Source: Brachyspira alvinipulli ATCC 51933
GTDB taxonomy: Bacteria; Spirochaetota; Brachyspiria; Brachyspirales; Brachyspiraceae
Direction of reading: 5' to 3'
Length of the DNA: 59,899 nt
Assembly (NCBI RefSeq): GCF_000518245.1
Contig: NZ_KI912406.1
Coordinates: 1-59,899, forward strand
The notes beneath the pieces are model-generated. The model ran no database searches. It had not been told where the DNA came from and was given only the letters and a program-made list of their open reading frames with translations. A program made the position numbers and the translations under genes. Positions 31,695 through 40,832 of the stretch are shown piece by piece. Numbering within the stretch: position 1 is the first letter of the stretch; each line of letters begins with the position of its first letter.

Positions 31695-31863
31695 TATATT
31701 ATATATATTAAATTTTAAACTTTTTCATAAAACATTGATATTATATATTTGTTTATACTACATTTTATACTATTAAAAAATATTGGAATTAGCTATTGTA
31801 AAAAAAATTATTTATGTTATTTTAAAAGTATTAGAATAAAATTCTAGTTTTATGGAGTTTTTT

Positions 31864-32199
31864 ATGGATATATCTGTCAAAGAACTTGAGAATAATGTTG
31901 TTATACTTAAGTTAGACGGTGATATAGATGTTTATACATCATCAGACTTGAAAGATGCAATTTTTATGCAGATGGATCTTGGGGCTAAAAAAATAATTGT
32001 AGATATGGAGTATGTTTACTATATAGATAGCAGCGGAATAGGGGTATTTATTTCTGCATTAGGTTCATTTAAGAAAGTTAATGGTAAGATATGTATTGTA
32101 AAAATTACAGATCCCGTTAAAAAAGTGTTTGAACTTACAAAAATTACTAGTTTTTTTCCAATATTTACGAGTGAAACCGAAGCATTAGAAAACTTTTAA
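31864..32199 (+). CDS. STAS-domain anti-sigma factor antagonist
   Basis: The ATG at 31864 follows GGAG by 6 bases; the ATG at 31852 would contain this ribosome-binding site and is rejected. The 111-residue protein is a single STAS domain of the SpoIIAA type, with the phosphorylation-site region YIDSSGIGVFI at about residues 53-63. Such proteins bind anti-sigma kinases in a partner-switching cascade. No kinase, phosphatase or sigma factor gene is adjacent, so the partner is elsewhere. The ATP synthase operon that follows is not obviously linked. Confidence 0.9.
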   Translation: MDISVKELENNVVILKLDGDIDVYTSSDLKDAIFMQMDLGAKKIIVDMEYVYYIDSSGIGVFISALGSFKKVNGKICIVKITDPVKKVFELTKITSFFPIFTSETEALENF

Positions 32200-32322
32200 T
32201 TAAAAATAAAAATAGTTGATTTTTTATTTAATAGTTATAAAATTATTAGAAAATTATTTGAAATTCTTTAATAGTTATGATTTGAATTAAAGTTTTCATA
32301 AATTAAGTTGGCAATTTTTATT

Positions 32323-33231
32323 ATGAAAGAATTATTTTTAATTAGAAAATTTTTTATATTTGTATTGATTTTTTTTGCTTTATTTAGTAATAATATTGTT
32401 TATGGTGCTGAAAGTATTAATGATTTCATTATGGAAGAGATTACAGATAATACAGCCCATCCGTTCTATACTATACCTATAAAATTGGGTCATTATATTG
32501 ATTTTGATTTTAAAATAACTAAACATGTTATATTAATAACATTGGCAGGTATATTATCTATTGCCAGTATGAAATATTTGGCACATAAATTAAAACGTCC
32601 TTTCAAAAGACCTACATATTTGCAAAGTGTATTAGAAACTCTAATAGATTATATGAATAAAGATGTAATAGGAGCCACATTAGGAGAAGAGGGAAAGAAA
32701 TATGTACCTTTTTGTATGACTATATTCCTATTTGTGTTATTTTCTAATATATTAGGTTTAATTCCGGCACTTATAAAACTTCCTACTCAAGATGGTCATT
32801 ATGCATATATTGCGGGTGGAATTGGAGCGAATATTGGTTTTACAGGGGCTATAGCTATAATAGTATTTGTAGTATATATGTTTGCTGGAATTAGAAAGAA
32901 AGGTGTAATAAAGTTTTGGATAAAATTAGTTCCTAAAGGTCTTCCAGTGCCACTTATTCCTATAATATGGGTTTTGGAATTCATTACTTTATTTAATAGA
33001 GCATTTGCATTGGCTATACGTTTATTTGCTAATATTACAGGCGGTCACATAATGATGATGGTTATACCGTATTTAATAATATTGTCTGGTACATTATTTG
33101 TTTCGCCTTTCGCAATATTATTTTTAAGTTTTATATATGTACTTGAAATGTTTGTGGCAGTTTTGCAGGCTTATATATTCTCATTATTATCAGCGGTTTA
33201 TATTGGTATTGCTATTAGTGATGAGCATTAA
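32323..33231 (+). CDS. atpB: ATP synthase F0 subunit a
   Basis: The ATG at 32323 is preferred over the TTG at 32308. The 302-residue protein starts with a cleavable-looking signal (about 1-29, ending VYGAES), as in some other phyla, then several membrane segments. The helix with the essential Arg reads RAFALAIRLFANITGGH at about residues 222-238, and the last membrane segments are rich in polar residues for proton access. Subunit a forms the half channels beside the c-ring. It is the first gene of the ATP synthase operon, without an adjacent atpI. Confidence 0.93.
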   Translation: MKELFLIRKFFIFVLIFFALFSNNIVYGAESINDFIMEEITDNTAHPFYTIPIKLGHYIDFDFKITKHVILITLAGILSIASMKYLAHKLKRPFKRPTYLQSVLETLIDYMNKDVIGATLGEEGKKYVPFCMTIFLFVLFSNILGLIPALIKLPTQDGHYAYIAGGIGANIGFTGAIAIIVFVVYMFAGIRKKGVIKFWIKLVPKGLPVPLIPIIWVLEFITLFNRAFALAIRLFANITGGHIMMMVIPYLIILSGTLFVSPFAILFLSFIYVLEMFVAVLQAYIFSLLSAVYIGIAISDEH

Positions 33232-33239
33232 TTATATAA

Positions 33240-33494
<255 letters not shown>

Positions 33495-33518: not shown

Positions 33519-34022
33519 ATGGCACTTTTAAAAATAGATCCTGGTATTATAATATGGACTTGGATTACATTTTTACTAGTTCTTGCTGTATTAGGTGCTT
33601 CTACATGGAAAATAATACTAAAGGGATTAAATGCACGTGCTGACAAGATTCAAGAGGATTTGGAAGAAGCTGAAAAGACTAGAGAAAATGCTAAAAAATC
33701 TTTGGCTGCGTATAGGGAACAAATTGATAATGCAAAAGCAGAGGCAAGTTCTATTATAGAAAATGCTAGAATTGAAGCCAACAGAGTTAGGGATAAAATT
33801 ATCAATAATGCTAGAGAAGAAGCTGAGGCCAATAAAAATAAAATACTTTCTGAAATAGACAGATCTAAAGAAGAGGCTGTAAGCAGTGTAAGAAAACAGG
33901 CTGTTGATATTGCTATTGTTATGGCTGAAACTATCTTAAAAAGAAATATTAATAGAGAAGATAATCAGGCATTAATTAATGAATTTATCAATAAAGCTAA
34001 TAAAGAAGATAATGTAAAATAA
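33519..34022 (+). CDS. atpF: ATP synthase F0 subunit b
   Basis: The ATG at 33519 follows GGGGGA by about 9 bases; the upstream TTG (33510) is rejected. The 167-residue protein has one membrane segment (about 8-30) and a long Glu/Lys/Ala-rich coiled coil, the peripheral stalk. It should dimerise and contact the delta protein encoded next. Only one b gene is present, so a b2 homodimer is expected. Confidence 0.93.
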
Positions 34023-34050: not shown

Positions 34051-34599
34051 ATGAAAGAAAGTAATAAATTAGAAATATTAAGACCCACTGCAGCAGCTAT
34101 ATTTGATTTGGCTAAACAGTTAGGGCTTATAAAAGAAATATATAATGAACTTTTCGAATGTTCTAAGTTATTTAATGATGATGATATAAAGAAATATTTT
34201 TTTGATAAATTAATTTCTAAAAAAGATAAATTGGAGCTAATAGAAAAGAAACTTAAACCTTTACTTTCTAAAGAGACTTATGCTTTTGTAGCTATATTGA
34301 CTGAACATGACAGTATTTGTGTTTTGCCTGAGATTACAGCTTTGTATAAAGATATGATGGATGATTATAATGATACAGTTAGAGTTCGTATTATAACTGC
34401 TTATAATCTTGATGAGGCAACTATGGATAACATTGTCAAAACTGTTAAATGTTTTTCTAATAAAAAAATAGTTTATGAAAAAGAGATAGATGAAAGTATT
34501 GTAGGAGGTATAATAGTTCATATTGGTACTACAGTTTATGATTATAGCGTAAAGAATCAAATAAATATGCTGCAAAGCAAATTTGCTCATGGCGGATAA
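34051..34599 (+). CDS. atpH: ATP synthase F1 subunit delta-like protein, first copy
   Basis: The 182-residue protein is of the delta/OSCP family: an all-helical N-terminal half (about 1-105) and a C-terminal half with the signature [28 protein letters not shown] at about 147-175. Delta joins the b stalk to the top of the alpha/beta hexamer. A second delta-like gene follows after 24 bases. This copy starts with [16 protein letters not shown], matching the family opening less well than the second copy, which has YAKAMFDAATELG. The two are diverged and of different length. Which one occupies the complex is unknown. Confidence 0.85.
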
Positions 34600-34623
34600 T
34601 AAAAGCATTATAGGAGTATAAAA

Positions 34624-35265
34624 ATGGATTCTATCACTGATAATATTTTAAGCAATCTTAAAAAAGAGGTTCTTAAAGAGATTACCAGAGAAAAAGCCAG
34701 CAGATTCACCAGAATTGTTAAAAATGAAGCTAGTGCTAAAAATTATGCAAAAGCTATGTTTGATGCAGCTACTGAGCTTGGAAAGATAGAAGACATTAAA
34801 AAAGATTTAAATATTGTTTACTCATCTTTGCTTGTTGATAAAGATATATTTGATTTTTTTAGGTCAAATTTTATCGATGTGCATTTAAGAATGAGTATGC
34901 TTAAAAAGGTTTATGAAAATAATATATCTGAAGAAACTTTTAATCTCATTGCTATTTTAACAGAGAGAGGTTTGATAGATATATTATTTGCTATAATAGT
35001 AGAATATGAGAATTTATGTAATGAATACTATAATATAGTAGTAGCAAAAATTACAACTTCATCTGTTATAGAAGATACTCCGGAAGTAGAAGTTTTAAAA
35101 AAGCATATAAGAAGCATGGTAAAAGGAAAAGATGTTCATTTTACTTTTCATGTGGATGAATCTATAATAGGCGGAGTTATTGTAGAGATGGAAGATATAG
35201 TTTATGATTATAGTATAAGGAATTTACTTACAGAATTAGGGCTTTCTATCTCGGATAATGGTTAA
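34624..35265 (+). CDS. atpH: ATP synthase F1 subunit delta-like protein, second copy
   Basis: The 213-residue protein has the classical delta opening AKNYAKAMFDAATELGKIEDI, after an N-terminal extension of about 35 charged residues. It also has the C-terminal signature HVDESIIGGVIVEMEDIVYDYSIRN at about 178-200. An AGGAG ribosome-binding site lies upstream and atpA follows. It shares family patterns with the 182-residue neighbour but little sequence, so the duplication is probably old or the first copy evolves fast. The N-terminal extension could contact a partner that a single delta does not. Confidence 0.88.
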   Translation: MDSITDNILSNLKKEVLKEITREKASRFTRIVKNEASAKNYAKAMFDAATELGKIEDIKKDLNIVYSSLLVDKDIFDFFRSNFIDVHLRMSMLKKVYENNISEETFNLIAILTERGLIDILFAIIVEYENLCNEYYNIVVAKITTSSVIEDTPEVEVLKKHIRSMVKGKDVHFTFHVDESIIGGVIVEMEDIVYDYSIRNLLTELGLSISDNG

Positions 35266-35295: not shown

Positions 35296-36795
35296 ATGAA
35301 TATAAAAGCTAGTGAAATAGCAGCTGTTCTTAAAGAAGAGATTAAGAATTATAAAGCTGATTTTACTCCTAATGAAATTGGAGTAGTTGTTGAAGTTGGA
35401 GACGGTATAGCTAGGGTTATAGGACTTCCTCATGTTATGGCTAATGAGATGATTCTTTTTGAATGCGGTTCCGTTGGTATTGCTTTTAACTTGGAAGAAG
35501 AGACTGTAGGCGCCATAGTTTTAGGTGATTATTTTGGTATTAAAGAGGGAAGTAAGGTTTCCAGACTTAAAAGAATATTAGAAGTTCCAGTAGGAGAAGC
35601 ACTTTTAGGAAGAGTTGTTAATCCTTTAGGTGTGACTATAGACGGACATGGAGATATAACAACAGATAAAAGAAGAGTTATTGAGTTTCCGGCACCTGGT
35701 ATTGCTGACAGACAGGCGGTAAAACAGCCTCTTCAAACAGGTATTAAAGCAATAGATTCCATGACTCCTATAGGAAGAGGTCAAAGACAGCTTATAATTG
35801 GAGACAGAGGAACAGGAAAAACTAGTATTGCTCTTGATGCCATAATAAATCAAAAAGGTAAAGATGTTATATGTGTGTATGTAGCTATAGGTCAAAAGGC
35901 TTCTACTGTTGCTGGTGTTGTTGAAACATTAAGACAGAATGGGGCATTAGATTATACTATAGTAGTTGCTGCAACTGCTGCTGATTCTGCTCCGCTTCTT
36001 TATATAGCTCCTTATGCAGGCTGTGCTATGGCAGAATATTTCATGTATGAAAAGAAAAAAGATACATTAATAATATATGATGATTTAACTAAACAGGCTA
36101 ATGCTTACAGACAGATTTCATTACTTTTAAGAAGACCTCCTGGAAGAGAAGCATTTCCTGGCGATGTATTCTATTTGCATTCAAGACTTCTTGAAAGAGC
36201 TGCTAAACTTAGCGATGAATTAGGCGGAGGTTCTTTAACTGCACTTCCTATAATAGAGACTCAGGATAATGAGGTTTCTGCTTATATTCCTACTAACGTT
36301 ATTTCTATAACAGATGGACAGATATATTTGCTTGCAAGTTTATTTATGAGCGGTGTTCGTCCTGCTATTGATGTTGGTATATCCGTTTCGCGTGTAGGAG
36401 GTAATGCTCAGACTAAGGCTATGAAAAAGGTTGCCGGTACTTTAAGACTTGACCTTGCTTCTTACAGATCTTTAGAGGCATTCTCACAGCTTGGTATAGG
36501 ACTTGATAAGGCTACTTTGGCACAATTAGACAGAGGTGCTAAAATGGTTGAATTACTTAAGCAGAAGCAATGCACTCCTTTGCCTTTTGAAGAGCAGGTA
36601 GTTGTTATATTTGCTGCTACTAAAGGTTTCTTAGATAATATTGAAGTTGAAAGAGTTCATGAGTTTGAATGGAGATTATTGCAGTATATGAGAGCTGATA
36701 AGCAGAATATACTTGATAAAATTAAAGATTCAAAAGATATAGAAAATCCTGATGAACTTTATGCTGTTATAGAAGAATTTAAAGCTAAGTTTTAA
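35296..36795 (+). CDS. atpA: ATP synthase F1 subunit alpha
   Basis: The ATG at 35296 follows GGGGAA, so the TTG at 35281 is rejected. The 499-residue protein has Walker [12 protein letters not shown] at about residues 166-176, the regulatory nucleotide-site pattern, and the signature [14 protein letters not shown] near 361. Alpha alternates with the catalytic beta subunit in the F1 hexamer. The length is normal. The gene for beta is not in this operon. Confidence 0.96.
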
Positions 36796-36930
36796 ATAGA
36801 ATTTAGAGTAATAATTTTTATTGGTATTATTATGTTAAATATAAAAATTATGAGTGTTCAGCATTTGTAAGAATTTTTATTATCTAAATTATGTTTTTAT
36901 TATGAAGCAGTGTTAATTTGGAGTTTTATT

Positions 36931-37809
36931 ATGGCAGAGAAACTTAATGTATTGAAGGCAAGAATAAAAGCTGTAACAAGTACGCATAAAATAACTAAAA
37001 CAATGGATATGATAGCACGTTCCAGAACGGCAAAGATATTAACAGTGGAACAAGGTATGCGTCCTTTTACTCAGAAATTAAACAGAATAGTAGAAGATCT
37101 TTCTCATTCAGATATGGATCATCTTCATCCTTTGCTTTCTCCAAAAAAGAAAATAAAGAATATAATACTTTTTGTTGTAACTTCAAGCAGAGGTTTATGC
37201 GGTTCTTATAATACAAAGATTTTTGATGAGGCTATGGAGAGAATAAGGCATCATCACAGACATGGAAGAGAGGTTGAGCTTCATGTACTTGGCAAAAAAG
37301 GCGAAGTATATTTTGAAAAACAGGGAATACCTATAGCGCGTAAATATCCGCGTATAGATGAAGAGTCTAATTTTGATGATTGTGCTACGGTTGTTCAGCG
37401 TTTCATGCACCAGTATGCTATTGATAAAGCATCAAGAGTAGAAGTTATATATACTAGATATTATACTAGGGTTGTACATATACCTAAAATAAAAAGTTTA
37501 ATTCCTATGATTCCTGATGAAGAGGATATTGAAGGACATAAAATAAAAAAACAATTAGATTATGTTATAGAACCAAATAGGGAAGAAGTGTTAAAAGAGA
37601 TTGTACCTATGGCCATTAAAACTTATTTTTATTTTATGCTTACTAGTTCTTTTTTATCTGAGAATGCCGAAAGATCCATTGCTATGAGAAATGCTACCGA
37701 TAATGCTGAGAGATTATTAGCTGATTTAAAAAATAAAGCAAACAGAGCCAGACAGGAACATATTACTAATGAGCTTCTTGATATTATAGGAGGTTCTGAG
37801 GCTATATAA
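36931..37809 (+). CDS. atpG: ATP synthase F1 subunit gamma
   Basis: The ATG at 36931 follows TTTGGAG; the longer frame from 36910 has a poorer start. The 292-residue protein is the central rotor shaft: an N-terminal helix LKARIKAVTSTHKITKTMDMIA, SSRGLCGSYN at about 81-90, and a C-terminal helix (SIAMRNATDNAERLLADL) that turns inside the hexamer. The 135-base gap after atpA is unusual for an atp operon and holds no gene. A strong terminator follows directly, so atpD and atpC are not co-transcribed. Confidence 0.95.
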   Translation: MAEKLNVLKARIKAVTSTHKITKTMDMIARSRTAKILTVEQGMRPFTQKLNRIVEDLSHSDMDHLHPLLSPKKKIKNIILFVVTSSRGLCGSYNTKIFDEAMERIRHHHRHGREVELHVLGKKGEVYFEKQGIPIARKYPRIDEESNFDDCATVVQRFMHQYAIDKASRVEVIYTRYYTRVVHIPKIKSLIPMIPDEEDIEGHKIKKQLDYVIEPNREEVLKEIVPMAIKTYFYFMLTSSFLSENAERSIAMRNATDNAERLLADLKNKANRARQEHITNELLDIIGGSEAI

Positions 37810-37960: not shown

Positions 37961-38019
37961 GAGAATAATTTATTTTTATAGTATAATACCTCAAATTATT
38001 AATTACTATGAGGCGGTAT
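37961..38019 (+). promoter_or_regulatory. Shared promoter type, ankyrin gene copy 1
   Basis: A perfect TATAAT (37982-37987) preceded by TTTTTATAG lies 33 bases before the ATG, followed by AATTATTAATTACTAT and an AGGCGGT ribosome-binding site. The same block recurs before the other two copies. Confidence 0.6.
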
Positions 38020-38760
38020 ATGAAAAATTTGTTATTAATTTCTTTTGTTTTAATGATTACTTTTATTGTTTCTTGCGGTAAAAAAGAAGAGGCTAGTATA
38101 AGTAATAATTCTCTGTATGTAAGTGATTCAAATAATATATATCATAAAACCTATAGTAATGTTGTAAAGATTCAGGGTAAATTTGTTAGCATGAATTCTT
38201 CTTTTTTTTATGCTGATAGAGAGGAAGGATAATACAGTGAGGAGTATGATATATTTGAGGCTATACAAAATCATAGCTTAAAGAGAGTGATTGAATTAAT
38301 AGAAGAATGCGTACATATAGATCAAACTTATAGTGGGGATAGAAAATATAGCGAGTTTTTCAATGATGATTATTATCTTGGCGGAGCTACTCTTTTAATG
38401 TTTGCTATATTTTATAGGGATTTAGGTATAATGAAATATTTGCTTGATAATGGTGCTGATCCTCATATTGAAGATGATAATGGATTGAATTCTTTTTTAT
38501 GGGCTTGCGGTGTTGGAAATGTTGATGTAATAAAAATGATTGTAGAGGCAGATCCTGATTTAGTTAATTCTCTTATTCATAGTAGAAACGGACTTCATAC
38601 TGCTATTTTATATAATAATGTTGAAGTATTTGAATATTTAGTAAATGATTTAGGTATTGATATAAACAGCACTGATGAGGACGACAACGGTGTTTTATAT
38701 TATGCTGCCAATGAAGATGAAGCATTAGAAAAGTTAAGAGAATTAGGTGCCGAAGAATAA
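38020..38760 (+). pseudogene. Ankyrin-repeat lipoprotein gene interrupted by a stop (copy 1)
   Basis: Read through one stop codon, this is a full-length copy of the two following genes: a lipoprotein signal (FIVSC lipobox), the KIQGKFVSMNS linker, then about four ankyrin-type repeats, including LLMFAIFYRDLGIMKYLLDNGADP. The frame is broken at 38230-38232 by TAA in REEG*YSEEYD. The second copy has GAA at this place (REEGEYSED), so a single base change explains it. The part after the stop stays open to 38760 and keeps good similarity, so the loss is recent, unless the stop is read through or is a sequencing error. Confidence 0.82.
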
Positions 38761-38779
38761 TTTTATAAAAATGATGCAT

Positions 38780-39072
38780 TTAGCAGATAGAGTCATTTTC
38801 TAGACTCAATTAGCGAACAATTTTTATTAGCAATAACAAATAATGGATTGTGAGCATTTCATATATTTTTAAGATTAATAAATTAAAAAATTGAGCGTCT
38901 AGCAATCGCCAAAGGCGTGCTAGAGCTTTAAAGCGAGATTTTTTAATTATTTGATAAATCAATTTTTATTAGCAACAACAAATAATAAATTGTGAGCGTC
39001 TAGCAAATTCGCCGAAGGCGGACAGAGTCCTTGCTAGACTCAATTAGCGAACAATTTTTATTAACAACAATA
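38780..39072. repeat. Structured intergenic repeats between ankyrin copies 1 and 2
   Basis: The 375-base gap 38761-39135 contains repeated blocks: CAATTTTTATTAGCAACAA-type (near 38819, 38960 and 39051, and before copy 1 near 37941) and GAGCGTCTAGCAA (near 38893 and 38994). Two hairpins are built on them. The first pairs TCTAGCA/TGCTAGA with inner CGCC/GGCG (38898-38924). The second pairs GTCTAGCAA/TTGCTAGAC with inner TTCGCC/GGCGGA (38998-39039). A shortened relative lies near 40006-40045. The G+C content of the stems stands out in this AT-rich DNA. Confidence 0.75.
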
Positions 39073-39135
39073 GAAAATAATTTGTTTTTATAGTATAATA
39101 CTTCGTAAATTATTAATTATTATACGGCGGTGTTT
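39073..39135 (+). promoter_or_regulatory. Shared promoter type, ankyrin gene copy 2
   Basis: TTTTTATAG-TATAAT (-10 at 39094-39099) and ATTATTAATTATTAT before GGCGGT repeat the block upstream of copies 1 and 3. Confidence 0.6.
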
Positions 39136-39894
39136 ATGAAAAGAATAAATGTTTCAAAAAGTACATTATTGATTTCTTTACTACTAATTATTTCAATTAT
39201 TTCATGTAAAAAGAAAGAGGAAGCAAGTGTAAATATAGCAGGAAATACTTCATATGTGAGTTCTCCAGAAAATATATATCATGCAACATACACTAATGTT
39301 GTAAAGATTCAGGGTAAATATGTTAGTATGAATTCTGCTTTTTCTTATGGTAACAGAGAAGAAGGAGAATACAGCGAAGACTATGATATATTTGAGGCTA
39401 TACAAAATCATAGTTTAAAGAGAGTGCAGGAATTAATAGAAGAAGGTGAAGATATAGATGAAACTTACTTTGGAGATAGTTTATATAGTGAATTTATGGA
39501 TGATAGTTATGCAATAAATGGTGCTACACCTTTGATATTTGCTGTATTTTATAGAGATTTGGGTATAATGAAATATTTACTTGATAATGGAGCTGATCCT
39601 TATGTTACTGATGATGACGGATGGAATTCTTTTTTATGGGCATGCGGTACTGGAAATGTTGATGTAATAAGAATGCTTGTGCAGGCAGATTCTGATTTGG
39701 TTAATTCAAAAAATCCTTATGATGCAAACGGTCTTCTCATGGCTGCTTTAAATGATAATGTTGAAGTATTTGAGTATTTGGTAAATGATTTAGGAATAGA
39801 TATAAACAGCACTGATGAGGATGGAGACGGAGTTTTATATTATGCCAATGAAGATGAAGCAATAGAAAAGTTAAAAGAATTAGGGGCAGAATAA
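39136..39894 (+). CDS. Ankyrin-repeat lipoprotein (copy 2)
   Basis: The ATG at 39136 follows GGCGGT; a GTG at 39130 overlaps the ribosome-binding site. The 252-residue protein has a lipoprotein signal with lipobox ISC (IISIISCKKKEE), a linker with the conserved KIQGKYVSMNS, then ankyrin-like repeats at about 90-245 (SLKRVQELIEEGEDID, ATPLIFAVFYRDLGIMKYLLDNGADP, GNVDVIRMLVQAD, NVEVFEYLVNDLGIDIN). It should be anchored to a membrane facing the periplasm or surface. Ankyrin repeats bind proteins; the partner is unknown. It is intact while copy 1 is broken. Confidence 0.88.
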   Translation: MKRINVSKSTLLISLLLIISIISCKKKEEASVNIAGNTSYVSSPENIYHATYTNVVKIQGKYVSMNSAFSYGNREEGEYSEDYDIFEAIQNHSLKRVQELIEEGEDIDETYFGDSLYSEFMDDSYAINGATPLIFAVFYRDLGIMKYLLDNGADPYVTDDDGWNSFLWACGTGNVDVIRMLVQADSDLVNSKNPYDANGLLMAALNDNVEVFEYLVNDLGIDINSTDEDGDGVLYYANEDEAIEKLKELGAE

Positions 39895-39925
39895 TATTAG
39901 ATAAACTTATATTTATATATAATGA

Positions 39926-39968
39926 AATACCATTCATATATTCATTTTGTGAATGGTATTTTTTATTT
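39926..39968 (+). terminator. Terminator after ankyrin copy 2, near copy of the atpG terminator
   Basis: AATACCATTCA pairs with TGAATGGTATT, followed by TTTTTTATTTTAAATT. Arms, loop and tail match 37832-37880 closely, so the duplicated unit included the terminator. Confidence 0.85.
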
Positions 39969-40065
39969 TAAATTCTTTAGATTATTGAATGATTTTATAA
40001 AAATTCTGAGTGTCTATCAATGAATAGAGATTTAAAGCGAGATTTTTTAAATTATTTATATAAAA

Positions 40066-40121
40066 TAATTTGTTTTTATAGTATAATATATTAAATTATT
40101 AATTACTATATGGCGGTATAT
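40066..40121 (+). promoter_or_regulatory. Shared promoter type, ankyrin gene copy 3
   Basis: TTTTTATAG-TATAAT (-10 at 40082-40087) and AATTATTAATTACTAT before TGGCGGT again match the other copies. Confidence 0.6.
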
Positions 40122-40832
40122 ATGAAAAAAATGTTATTAATTTCTTTTGTTTTAATGATTACTTTTATTGTTTCTTGCAGTAAAAAAGAAGAGGATATTA
40201 TAAGTAATACTGATAATGCAGATAATAATATTTATACTAATGCTGTAAAGGTTCAGGGTAAATATGTTAATGTTAATACTGATTTTTCTTACGGCAACAG
40301 AGAAGAAGGAAAATACAGCAAAGATTATGATATATTTGAAGCTATAGAAAATCATAGTTTAAAAAGAGTGATTGAATTAATAGAAGAAGGTGAAGATATT
40401 AATCAAACTTACAGCGGCGGCAAAAAATATAGTGAGCTTCTTAATAATGATTATTATCTTGATGGAGCTACTCCTTTAATGTTTGCAGTATTTTATAGAG
40501 ATTTAGGTATAATGAAATATTTGCTTGATAATGGCGCTGATCCTAATATTATTCAAGATGAATATGAACGAAATGTATTTTTACTTGCTTGCGGTTTTGG
40601 AAATGTTGATGTAATAAAAATGATTGTAGATTTTGACTCTGATTTAGTTGATTCTATATCTAGCCGTGATGAGAATGGACTTGATATAGCTTATTTGTAT
40701 GGAAATATAGAAGTATTTGAATATTTAGTTAATACATTGGGTTTAACTACTGATATTTTGGATCATGTTGATGAAGAAGATCCGTACGAAAATACTGAGG
40801 ACATAAAAAAATTAAGAGAACTTCTAAATTAG
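40122..40832 (+). CDS. Ankyrin-repeat lipoprotein (copy 3)
   Basis: The ATG at 40122 follows GGCGGT. The 236-residue protein shares the signal (LMITFIVSCSKKEE) almost exactly with copy 1, the KVQGKYVNVN linker, and ankyrin-like units ATPLMFAVFYRDLGIMKYLLDNGADP, GNVDVIKMIVDFD and NIEVFEYLVNTLG. The C-terminus differs from copies 1 and 2: the INSTDEDG-type unit is replaced by TTDILDHVDEEDP. Divergence is therefore concentrated at the last repeat and in the signal-to-linker region, while the second and third repeats are well conserved. No terminator with a T-run is evident directly after it. Confidence 0.87.
   Translation: MKKMLLISFVLMITFIVSCSKKEEDIISNTDNADNNIYTNAVKVQGKYVNVNTDFSYGNREEGKYSKDYDIFEAIENHSLKRVIELIEEGEDINQTYSGGKKYSELLNNDYYLDGATPLMFAVFYRDLGIMKYLLDNGADPNIIQDEYERNVFLLACGFGNVDVIKMIVDFDSDLVDSISSRDENGLDIAYLYGNIEVFEYLVNTLGLTTDILDHVDEEDPYENTEDIKKLRELLN

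What the first reader, a model, noticed from the sequence alone, without database searches (positions are those of the whole stretch)
34051..35265. Two delta (atpH) genes in tandem in the ATP synthase operon
Both proteins carry the delta/OSCP C-terminal signature (ESIVGG / ESIIGG followed by YDYS-x2-N) and an all-helical first half, but they differ in length (182 and 213 residues) and share little sequence otherwise. F-type ATP synthases use a single delta. The second copy has the better family opening and an N-terminal extension. Either one copy has taken a new role, or the stalk cap is a heterodimer or condition-specific.
Basis: partly seen in the sequence, partly recalled or inferred. Interest (0 to 1): 0.62.

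Follow-up and report, generated by a model that had tools for sequence, protein, structure and literature searches.

The report
Two different delta caps, one synthase
Brachyspira spirochaetes carry two clearly different genes, side by side, for the cap that ties the stator stalk to the head of their ATP-making motor (most bacteria have one), and the added copy has changed just the surface that grips the motor head, so a 'one motor, one cap' rule may be bent here.

Summary
ORFs 34051-34599 (d1, 182 aa) and 34624-35265 (d2, 213 aa) are both full-length delta/OSCP subunits (Pfam OSCP 123 and 120 bits; TIGR01145 97 and 96 bits, cut-off 57.5; both models match solved deltas), 30% identical, in an atpB-E-F-d1-d2-A-G operon. 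It is not an assembly artefact: 24 of 26 Brachyspira genomes searched show both, each under purifying selection. Elsewhere in 393 Spirochaetota genomes no other lineage has two intact copies.

The delta tree fits the species tree for d2, so d2, with its 36-residue N-terminal extension, is the inherited delta, and d1 is an added paralogue. One Brachyspira genome (G019) has lost d2 and keeps only d1; sister genera have only the d2 type. So either type apparently can serve alone. d1 has replaced the near-invariant Tyr11, Ala8 and Asn75 (E. coli numbering) in helices 1 and 5, which bind the alpha N-terminus; d2 keeps them. d2's extension moderately resembles that same alpha docking helix (p about 0.001-0.02).

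Best reading: two alternative stator caps with different alpha-docking faces. A two-stalk enzyme with one of each is not excluded: the PDB Chloroflexus enzyme has two deltas and four b. No biochemical evidence exists here.

The parts
32308..33231 (+). atpB, Fo subunit a
   Evidence: Pfam ATP-synt_A E 5.6e-51
33273..33494 (+). atpE, Fo subunit c
   Evidence: Pfam ATP-synt_C E 1.3e-16
33519..34022 (+). atpF, single stator subunit b
   Evidence: Pfam ATP-synt_B E 1.2e-26; only match over the cut-off in the genome
34051..34599 (+). delta 1 (d1), 182 aa: added, derived delta/OSCP paralogue; Thr13 in place of the near-invariant Tyr (E. coli Y11), Leu10 for Ala8, Ala78 for Asn75
   Evidence: Pfam OSCP 123.3 bits, TIGR01145 97.5 bits; AlphaFold2 pLDDT 86, Foldseek top hits all delta/OSCP; column analysis
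34624..35265 (+). delta 2 (d2), 213 aa: vertically inherited delta/OSCP with N-terminal extension
   Evidence: Pfam OSCP 119.5 bits, TIGR01145 96.3 bits; tree; model
34624..34731 (+). N-terminal extension of d2, residues 1-36: a helix (about 2-20) resembling the alpha N-terminal docking helix, then a variable, low-confidence tether (24-33)
   Evidence: profile comparison with alpha N-termini; conserved helix, variable linker; model
35296..36795 (+). atpA, F1 subunit alpha, with the ordinary N-terminal delta-docking helix ([19 protein letters not shown])
   Evidence: Pfam ATP-synt_ab; N-terminus read
36928..37809 (+). atpG, F1 subunit gamma
   Evidence: Pfam ATP-synt E 3e-77

Best explanation
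The locus encodes an F-type ATP synthase operon in which the delta/OSCP gene exists as two old paralogues. d2 is the delta inherited from the Brachyspiraceae ancestor. d1 is a second copy, fixed at or before the base of Brachyspira, that kept the whole fold and the b-binding C-terminal domain but rewrote the helix 1/helix 5 face that grips the N-terminal helix of alpha. Most likely each is a complete cap of the b2 stator stalk, and a given enzyme takes either d1 or d2, so the cell holds two populations of synthase whose caps hold the F1 head differently. Shown by sequence: two full deltas, genus-wide conservation, order of descent, the altered face of d1, and lineages that live with only one or the other. 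Inferred: that both proteins are made, that each enzyme takes one cap, and that the two caps differ in grip or regulation.
For: Both proteins match the OSCP family end to end and pass the delta equivalog cut-off, and both models have the complete two-domain delta fold. Both occur in 24 of 26 Brachyspira genomes; the exceptions are G019 (one copy) and the incomplete G021 (none). Pairwise dN/dS is mostly 0.05-0.25 in both genes. Each is a separate clade at 100/99 support. d2 groups with the single deltas of the sister genera in the same order as rpoB+atpD place those genera, so d2 is vertical. Each type is found alone: d1 in G019, d2 type in G026, G027, G028. There is only one b gene over the cut-off, so both must use the same b2. 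Of 25 well-conserved columns, d1 departs without any similar residue at E. coli positions 8, 11, 50 and 75; 8 and 11 lie in helix 1 and 75 in helix 5 of the models, and helices 1 and 5 are the alpha-binding site (PMC4057687). Both genes have Shine-Dalgarno-like sequences in most genomes.
Against: No expression, proteomic or structural data. Co-transcribed paralogues kept for so long often end up as partners in one complex (b and b' of cyanobacterial synthases, from general knowledge), which would favour the two-delta rival. In the window itself the ribosome-binding sequence of d1 looks weaker than that of d2. That G019 makes a working enzyme is inferred from gene content only.
Confidence: 0.5

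Rival explanations
1. Two-delta enzyme: one synthase carries one d1 and one d2, each capping its own b2 stalk (two peripheral stalks). One delta keeps the usual place on the F1 axis and the other uses a changed grip; the alpha-like helix at the start of d2 could supply an extra docking helix, since three alpha N-termini are too few for two deltas.
For: Precedent: PDB entries of the Chloroflexus aurantiacus synthase hold delta 12 chains in 6 entries, gamma 6 in 6 and b 72 in 18, i.e. two deltas and four b per complex. An engineered PS3 enzyme takes up to three stalks once the delta N-domain no longer sits on the axis (PMC12229609). d1 is altered at the alpha-docking face. Adjacent co-transcribed genes kept together across the genus.
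Against: Both d1 and d2 keep a full N-terminal domain, which according to PMC12229609 is what limits the stalk number to one; the Chloroflexus delta is shorter (157 aa). The d2 extension is present in sister genera that lack d1, and d1 persists without d2 in G019.
Confidence: 0.22
2. d1 has left the enzyme, or only visits it: an assembly or storage factor that binds the b2 stalk through its intact C-terminal domain but not F1, while d2 is the real cap.
For: The alpha-docking face is changed in all d1 examined while the C-terminal motif is kept.
Against: In G019 d1 is the only delta, next to complete a, c, b, alpha and gamma genes and with a beta gene. d1 fits the delta profile as well as d2 does.
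Confidence: 0.13
3. Recent or neutral duplication, or an assembly duplication, without meaning.
For: Tandem arrangement.
Against: 30% identity, separate 100/99 clades, the same pair in independent assemblies including single-contig genomes, and purifying selection on both.
Confidence: 0.05
4. d1 was acquired by horizontal transfer from outside the order.
For: It branches before the sister-genus deltas in the best tree.
Against: d1 carries the YDYS motif that d2, the sister genera and the order-level outgroup G162 share, against D-G-S in the other spirochaetes shown, and all Brachyspiraceae deltas group together (96/78, 99/86). A duplication on the Brachyspira stem is not rejected (AU p 0.06-0.09).
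Confidence: 0.06

Closest known systems
Bacterial F-type ATP synthase delta subunit / mitochondrial OSCP (Pfam PF00213, TIGR01145)
   Same: Both proteins: six-helix N-terminal domain plus mixed C-terminal domain, family motifs, place in the atp operon between b and alpha.
   Different: Two diverged genes instead of one; d1 lacks the near-invariant Tyr11; d2 has a 36-residue N-terminal extension.
Chloroflexus aurantiacus ATP synthase (PDB 9ITJ and related)
   Same: More than one delta in play; there two delta and four b chains per complex.
   Different: There the two deltas have one sequence (157 aa, short N-domain); here there are two distinct full-length genes, and the stoichiometry is unknown.
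Engineered delta(deltaN)-alpha fusion of Bacillus PS3 and the natural delta-alpha fusion reported for Acidaminococcus fermentans (PMC12229609)
   Same: Changes to how delta grips the top of F1, with possible consequences for the number of stalks.
   Different: There the N-domain is deleted and delta is fused to alpha; here both N-domains are intact and separate.
b / b' pair of cyanobacterial and chloroplast synthases (PMC6131620)
   Same: Two paralogous stator subunits encoded for one enzyme.
   Different: Concerns the stalk shaft, not its cap; b and b' are known to sit in one heterodimer.
Mycobacterial b-delta fusion
   Same: Unusual stator cap in which delta carries extra N-terminal sequence.
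   Different: The extra part is a b subunit; the d2 extension is a short helix unlike b.

Membership tests
F-type ATP synthase delta/OSCP (d1) | Whole-length match to the family profile above the curated cut-off | tested here: met
   PF00213 123.3 bits, profile 5-171/172; TIGR01145 97.5 against cut-off 57.5
F-type ATP synthase delta/OSCP (d2) | Whole-length match to the family profile above the curated cut-off | tested here: met
   PF00213 119.5 bits, profile 2-168/172; TIGR01145 96.3
F-type ATP synthase delta/OSCP (both) | Helical N-terminal domain plus C-terminal alpha/beta domain | tested here: met
   AlphaFold2 models and Foldseek: best matches all delta/OSCP, TM to 0.84 for d1 and 0.72 for d2
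F-type ATP synthase delta/OSCP (both) | C-terminal G-G and D-x-S motifs | tested here: met
   Invariant or nearly so in the alignments
F-type ATP synthase delta/OSCP (d1) | Conserved alpha-docking face, helices 1 and 5 (Tyr11, Asn75); typical of the family rather than strictly defining | tested here: not met
   Tyr11 is Thr or Ala in 11 of 11 d1, Asn75 is Ala/Thr/Val/Ser in 11 of 11; yet G019 has only this type
F-type ATP synthase delta/OSCP (d2) | Conserved alpha-docking face, helices 1 and 5 (Tyr11, Asn75) | tested here: met
   Tyr 15/15, Asn 15/15
F-type ATP synthase delta/OSCP (both) | Binds alpha N-terminus and b2 and couples F1 to Fo | not testable with these tools
   needs purified enzyme
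Two-stalk F-type synthase (as in C. aurantiacus) | Two delta and four b per enzyme | not testable with these tools
   needs native mass spectrometry or cryo-EM; one b gene here does not exclude it
Alpha-like docking helix in the d2 extension | Sequence match to alpha N-terminal helix beyond chance | tested here: inconclusive
   Same ungapped register in d2 and three sister deltas; none of 1679 background windows as high; 0-3 of 2000 shuffles with all ten rows, but 15-47 of 3000 when G028 and the start Met are left out

The most novel reading that the evidence does not exclude
Brachyspira builds an F-type ATP synthase with two different delta subunits in one particle, on two peripheral stalks, where the alpha-like N-terminal helix of d2 substitutes for a missing alpha N-terminus (in its own or in d1's groove) and d1 uses a re-shaped docking face: a natural heteromeric two-cap stator.
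Probability: 0.15. Interest if true: 0.85.

Novelty: new variant of a known kind. Interest (0 to 1): 0.52.

Why it matters
The delta subunit sets how many stator stalks an F-type synthase can have (PMC12229609). A genus with two conserved, diverged deltas, plus close relatives that have only one or the other, is a ready natural experiment on what fixes the one-cap rule and on whether bacteria can tune coupling by swapping the cap. The genus has cultivable species, so the native enzyme can be obtained.

Tried and rejected
Assembly duplication: rejected, since the copies are 30% identical and recur in independent assemblies. d1 as another family: rejected. d2 as a horizontal gain from a sister genus, suggested by the alpha tree that puts G019 at the base of the genus: set aside because rpoB+atpD place g3 outside g2+Brachyspira at 100/99 and reject g2+g3 as a clade (AU p 0.0008), so d2 follows the species tree; the place of G019 within the genus is unresolved (AU p 0.28). 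AlphaFold2 of d2 to see whether the extension docks on its own groove: the tool gives no coordinates and confidence across residues 24-33 is under 50, so nothing can be read from it. A first rpoB tree held a wrong reading frame for G150 and a first atpD tree held wrong frames; both were replaced. The codon-model run gave no omega value, so only pairwise dN/dS is cited. Survey of other phyla for tandem deltas: not possible, the tool does not accept a centre outside the held genomes. Literature: no open paper on Brachyspira F-type ATP synthase or on duplicated atpH found; the paper on the Chloroflexus enzyme was not in the library, so that precedent rests on PDB chain counts alone.

Full report
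What is there. The window holds an F-type ATP synthase operon: atpB 32308-33231, atpE 33273-33494, atpF 33519-34022, d1 34051-34599, d2 34624-35265, atpA 35296-36795, atpG 36928-37809. Subunits beta and epsilon lie on other contigs (C1 and C5). The genome (3.42 Mb, 99.99% complete) has exactly two OSCP genes, these two, and one b gene over the family cut-off.

Family test. d1 and d2 match Pfam OSCP along its whole length (123.3 and 119.5 bits, cut-off 22.3) and the NCBI delta equivalog TIGR01145 (97.5 and 96.3 bits, cut-off 57.5). They are 30% identical over 172 residues. AlphaFold2 models with alignments of related deltas reach pLDDT 86 (d1) and 82 (d2); in both cases the best Foldseek matches in the PDB are delta/OSCP chains, E about 1e-11.

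Distribution. Among 26 genomes of the genus, 24 have the pair; in one of these (G023) it is split over contigs. G019 (2.0 Mb, 99% complete) has one copy, and G021 (86% complete) none. Named carriers include B. hampsonii, B. innocens, B. pilosicoli and B. catarrhinii. Three genomes of two sister genera in the family have one copy. In a draw of 393 Spirochaetota genomes, 144 have OSCP; the only non-Brachyspira genome with two matches (G207) has weak ones, best E 5e-8. So the pair is a Brachyspira trait within the phylum; other phyla were not surveyed.

History. In the delta tree d1 and d2 each form a clade at 100/99. The single deltas of sister genera G026, G027 (g2) and G028 (g3) join d2 (99/84), with G028 outermost; d1 branches before them. 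The rpoB+atpD tree gives the same order for the genera, with g3 outside g2+Brachyspira, support 100/99. d2 therefore follows the species tree and is the inherited delta. d1 is the added copy: either an old duplication lost in g2 and g3, as in the best tree, or a fast-evolving duplication on the Brachyspira stem, which the AU test does not reject (p 0.06 and 0.09). d1 shares the order's YDYS motif, against D-G-S in the other spirochaetes shown, which argues against an origin outside the order. Since d2 is inherited, G019 has lost it: its operon runs b, d1, alpha with no room for d2. The alpha tree puts G019 at the base of the genus (89/84), while rpoB+atpD leave its place open.

Selection. Pairwise dN/dS between species is mostly 0.05-0.25 for both genes, so both are maintained.

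How they differ. Among 25 columns that are at least 70% conserved in d2, sister and other spirochaete deltas, d1 has no similar residue in any of 11 sequences at four: E. coli positions 8, 11, 50 and 75. Tyr11 is Tyr in 39 of 40 reference rows and Thr or Ala in all d1; Asn75 is Ala, Thr, Val or Ser in d1. By alignment to the models, positions 8 and 11 are in helix 1 and 75 in helix 5. Helices 1 and 5 form the binding site for the N-terminal helix of alpha in OSCP (PMC4057687). d1's C-terminal signature is kept. That E. coli Tyr11 matters for F1 binding is from memory, not tested. So the change in d1 is concentrated on the grip to F1, not on the contact with b.

The d2 extension. Residues 1-36 precede the family domain in d2 and in the sister-genus deltas, and the order-level outgroups G150 and G162 lack it. 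Its helix is conserved between d2 and the sisters (33% identity), the linker is not (5%), which suits a tethered docking helix. Its sequence (ITDNILSNLKKEVLKE; LTSSISDKLKQEIKSE in G027; LIETITSKLKEEVRNE in G026; NIESLSLALQEEIETY in G028) resembles the alpha docking helix ([31 protein letters not shown] in E. coli) in one ungapped register. A profile comparison scored 13.9 bits against at most 9.7 for 1679 background windows, with 0 or 1 of 2000 shuffles as high when the start Met is included. Without G028 and the start Met it falls to 10.8 bits and 15-32 of 3000 shuffles, and single-sequence scans are weaker still. The resemblance is suggestive, not proven, and its function (occupying d2's own groove until alpha displaces it, or docking on another delta) is inference.

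How it most likely works. Both types are found as the sole delta in some lineage, both are full length, there is one b gene, and a delta N-domain on the F1 axis limits a normal enzyme to one cap (PMC12229609). The simplest reading is two interchangeable caps, one per enzyme, differing in how they hold alpha. The main rival is one enzyme with both: PDB entries of the Chloroflexus aurantiacus synthase contain two delta and four b chains for one gamma, so nature does build such stators, and long-kept co-transcribed paralogues often become partners. Sequence alone cannot decide.

Verdict. A real, genus-wide and, as far as the open literature searched here shows, undescribed variant of the bacterial stator cap, with a clear and cheap decisive experiment (subunit stoichiometry of the native enzyme). 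Interest is moderate because the proteins belong to a well-known family and no functional data exist.

Noticed in passing
G000:C16 (L046:5793-13386): The same genome also encodes a V/A-type ATPase (A, B, D, I and K-type subunits), so it has two rotary ATPases.
   Followed up: partly
G000:C1:506775-508163 and G000:C5:25716-25958: The beta and epsilon genes of the F-type enzyme lie far from the window operon, on two other contigs; in G028 the alpha-like gene also lies apart from the c-b-delta genes.
   Followed up: partly
L041:10738-11388 and L040:8150-8824: In sister genus g2 a Diphthami_syn_2 (diphthine-ammonia-ligase-like) gene sits between delta and alpha, inside the ATP synthase operon.
   Followed up: no
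L039:10073-10900, L040:10355-11188, L043:4438-5187: A Core-2/I-branching type glycosyltransferase gene lies between atpA and atpG in G026, G019 and G001 but is absent from the window.
   Followed up: no
window 31852-32199: A STAS-domain (anti-sigma antagonist type) gene lies directly upstream of atpB and keeps that place in G001 and G019.
   Followed up: no
window 38008-40832: Several paralogous lipoprotein-like ankyrin-repeat genes lie in tandem downstream of atpG, the first apparently broken into two ORFs.
   Followed up: no
PDB 9ITJ and related entries: The Chloroflexus aurantiacus ATP synthase entries hold two delta and four b chains per gamma, i.e. apparently two peripheral stalks.
   Followed up: partly
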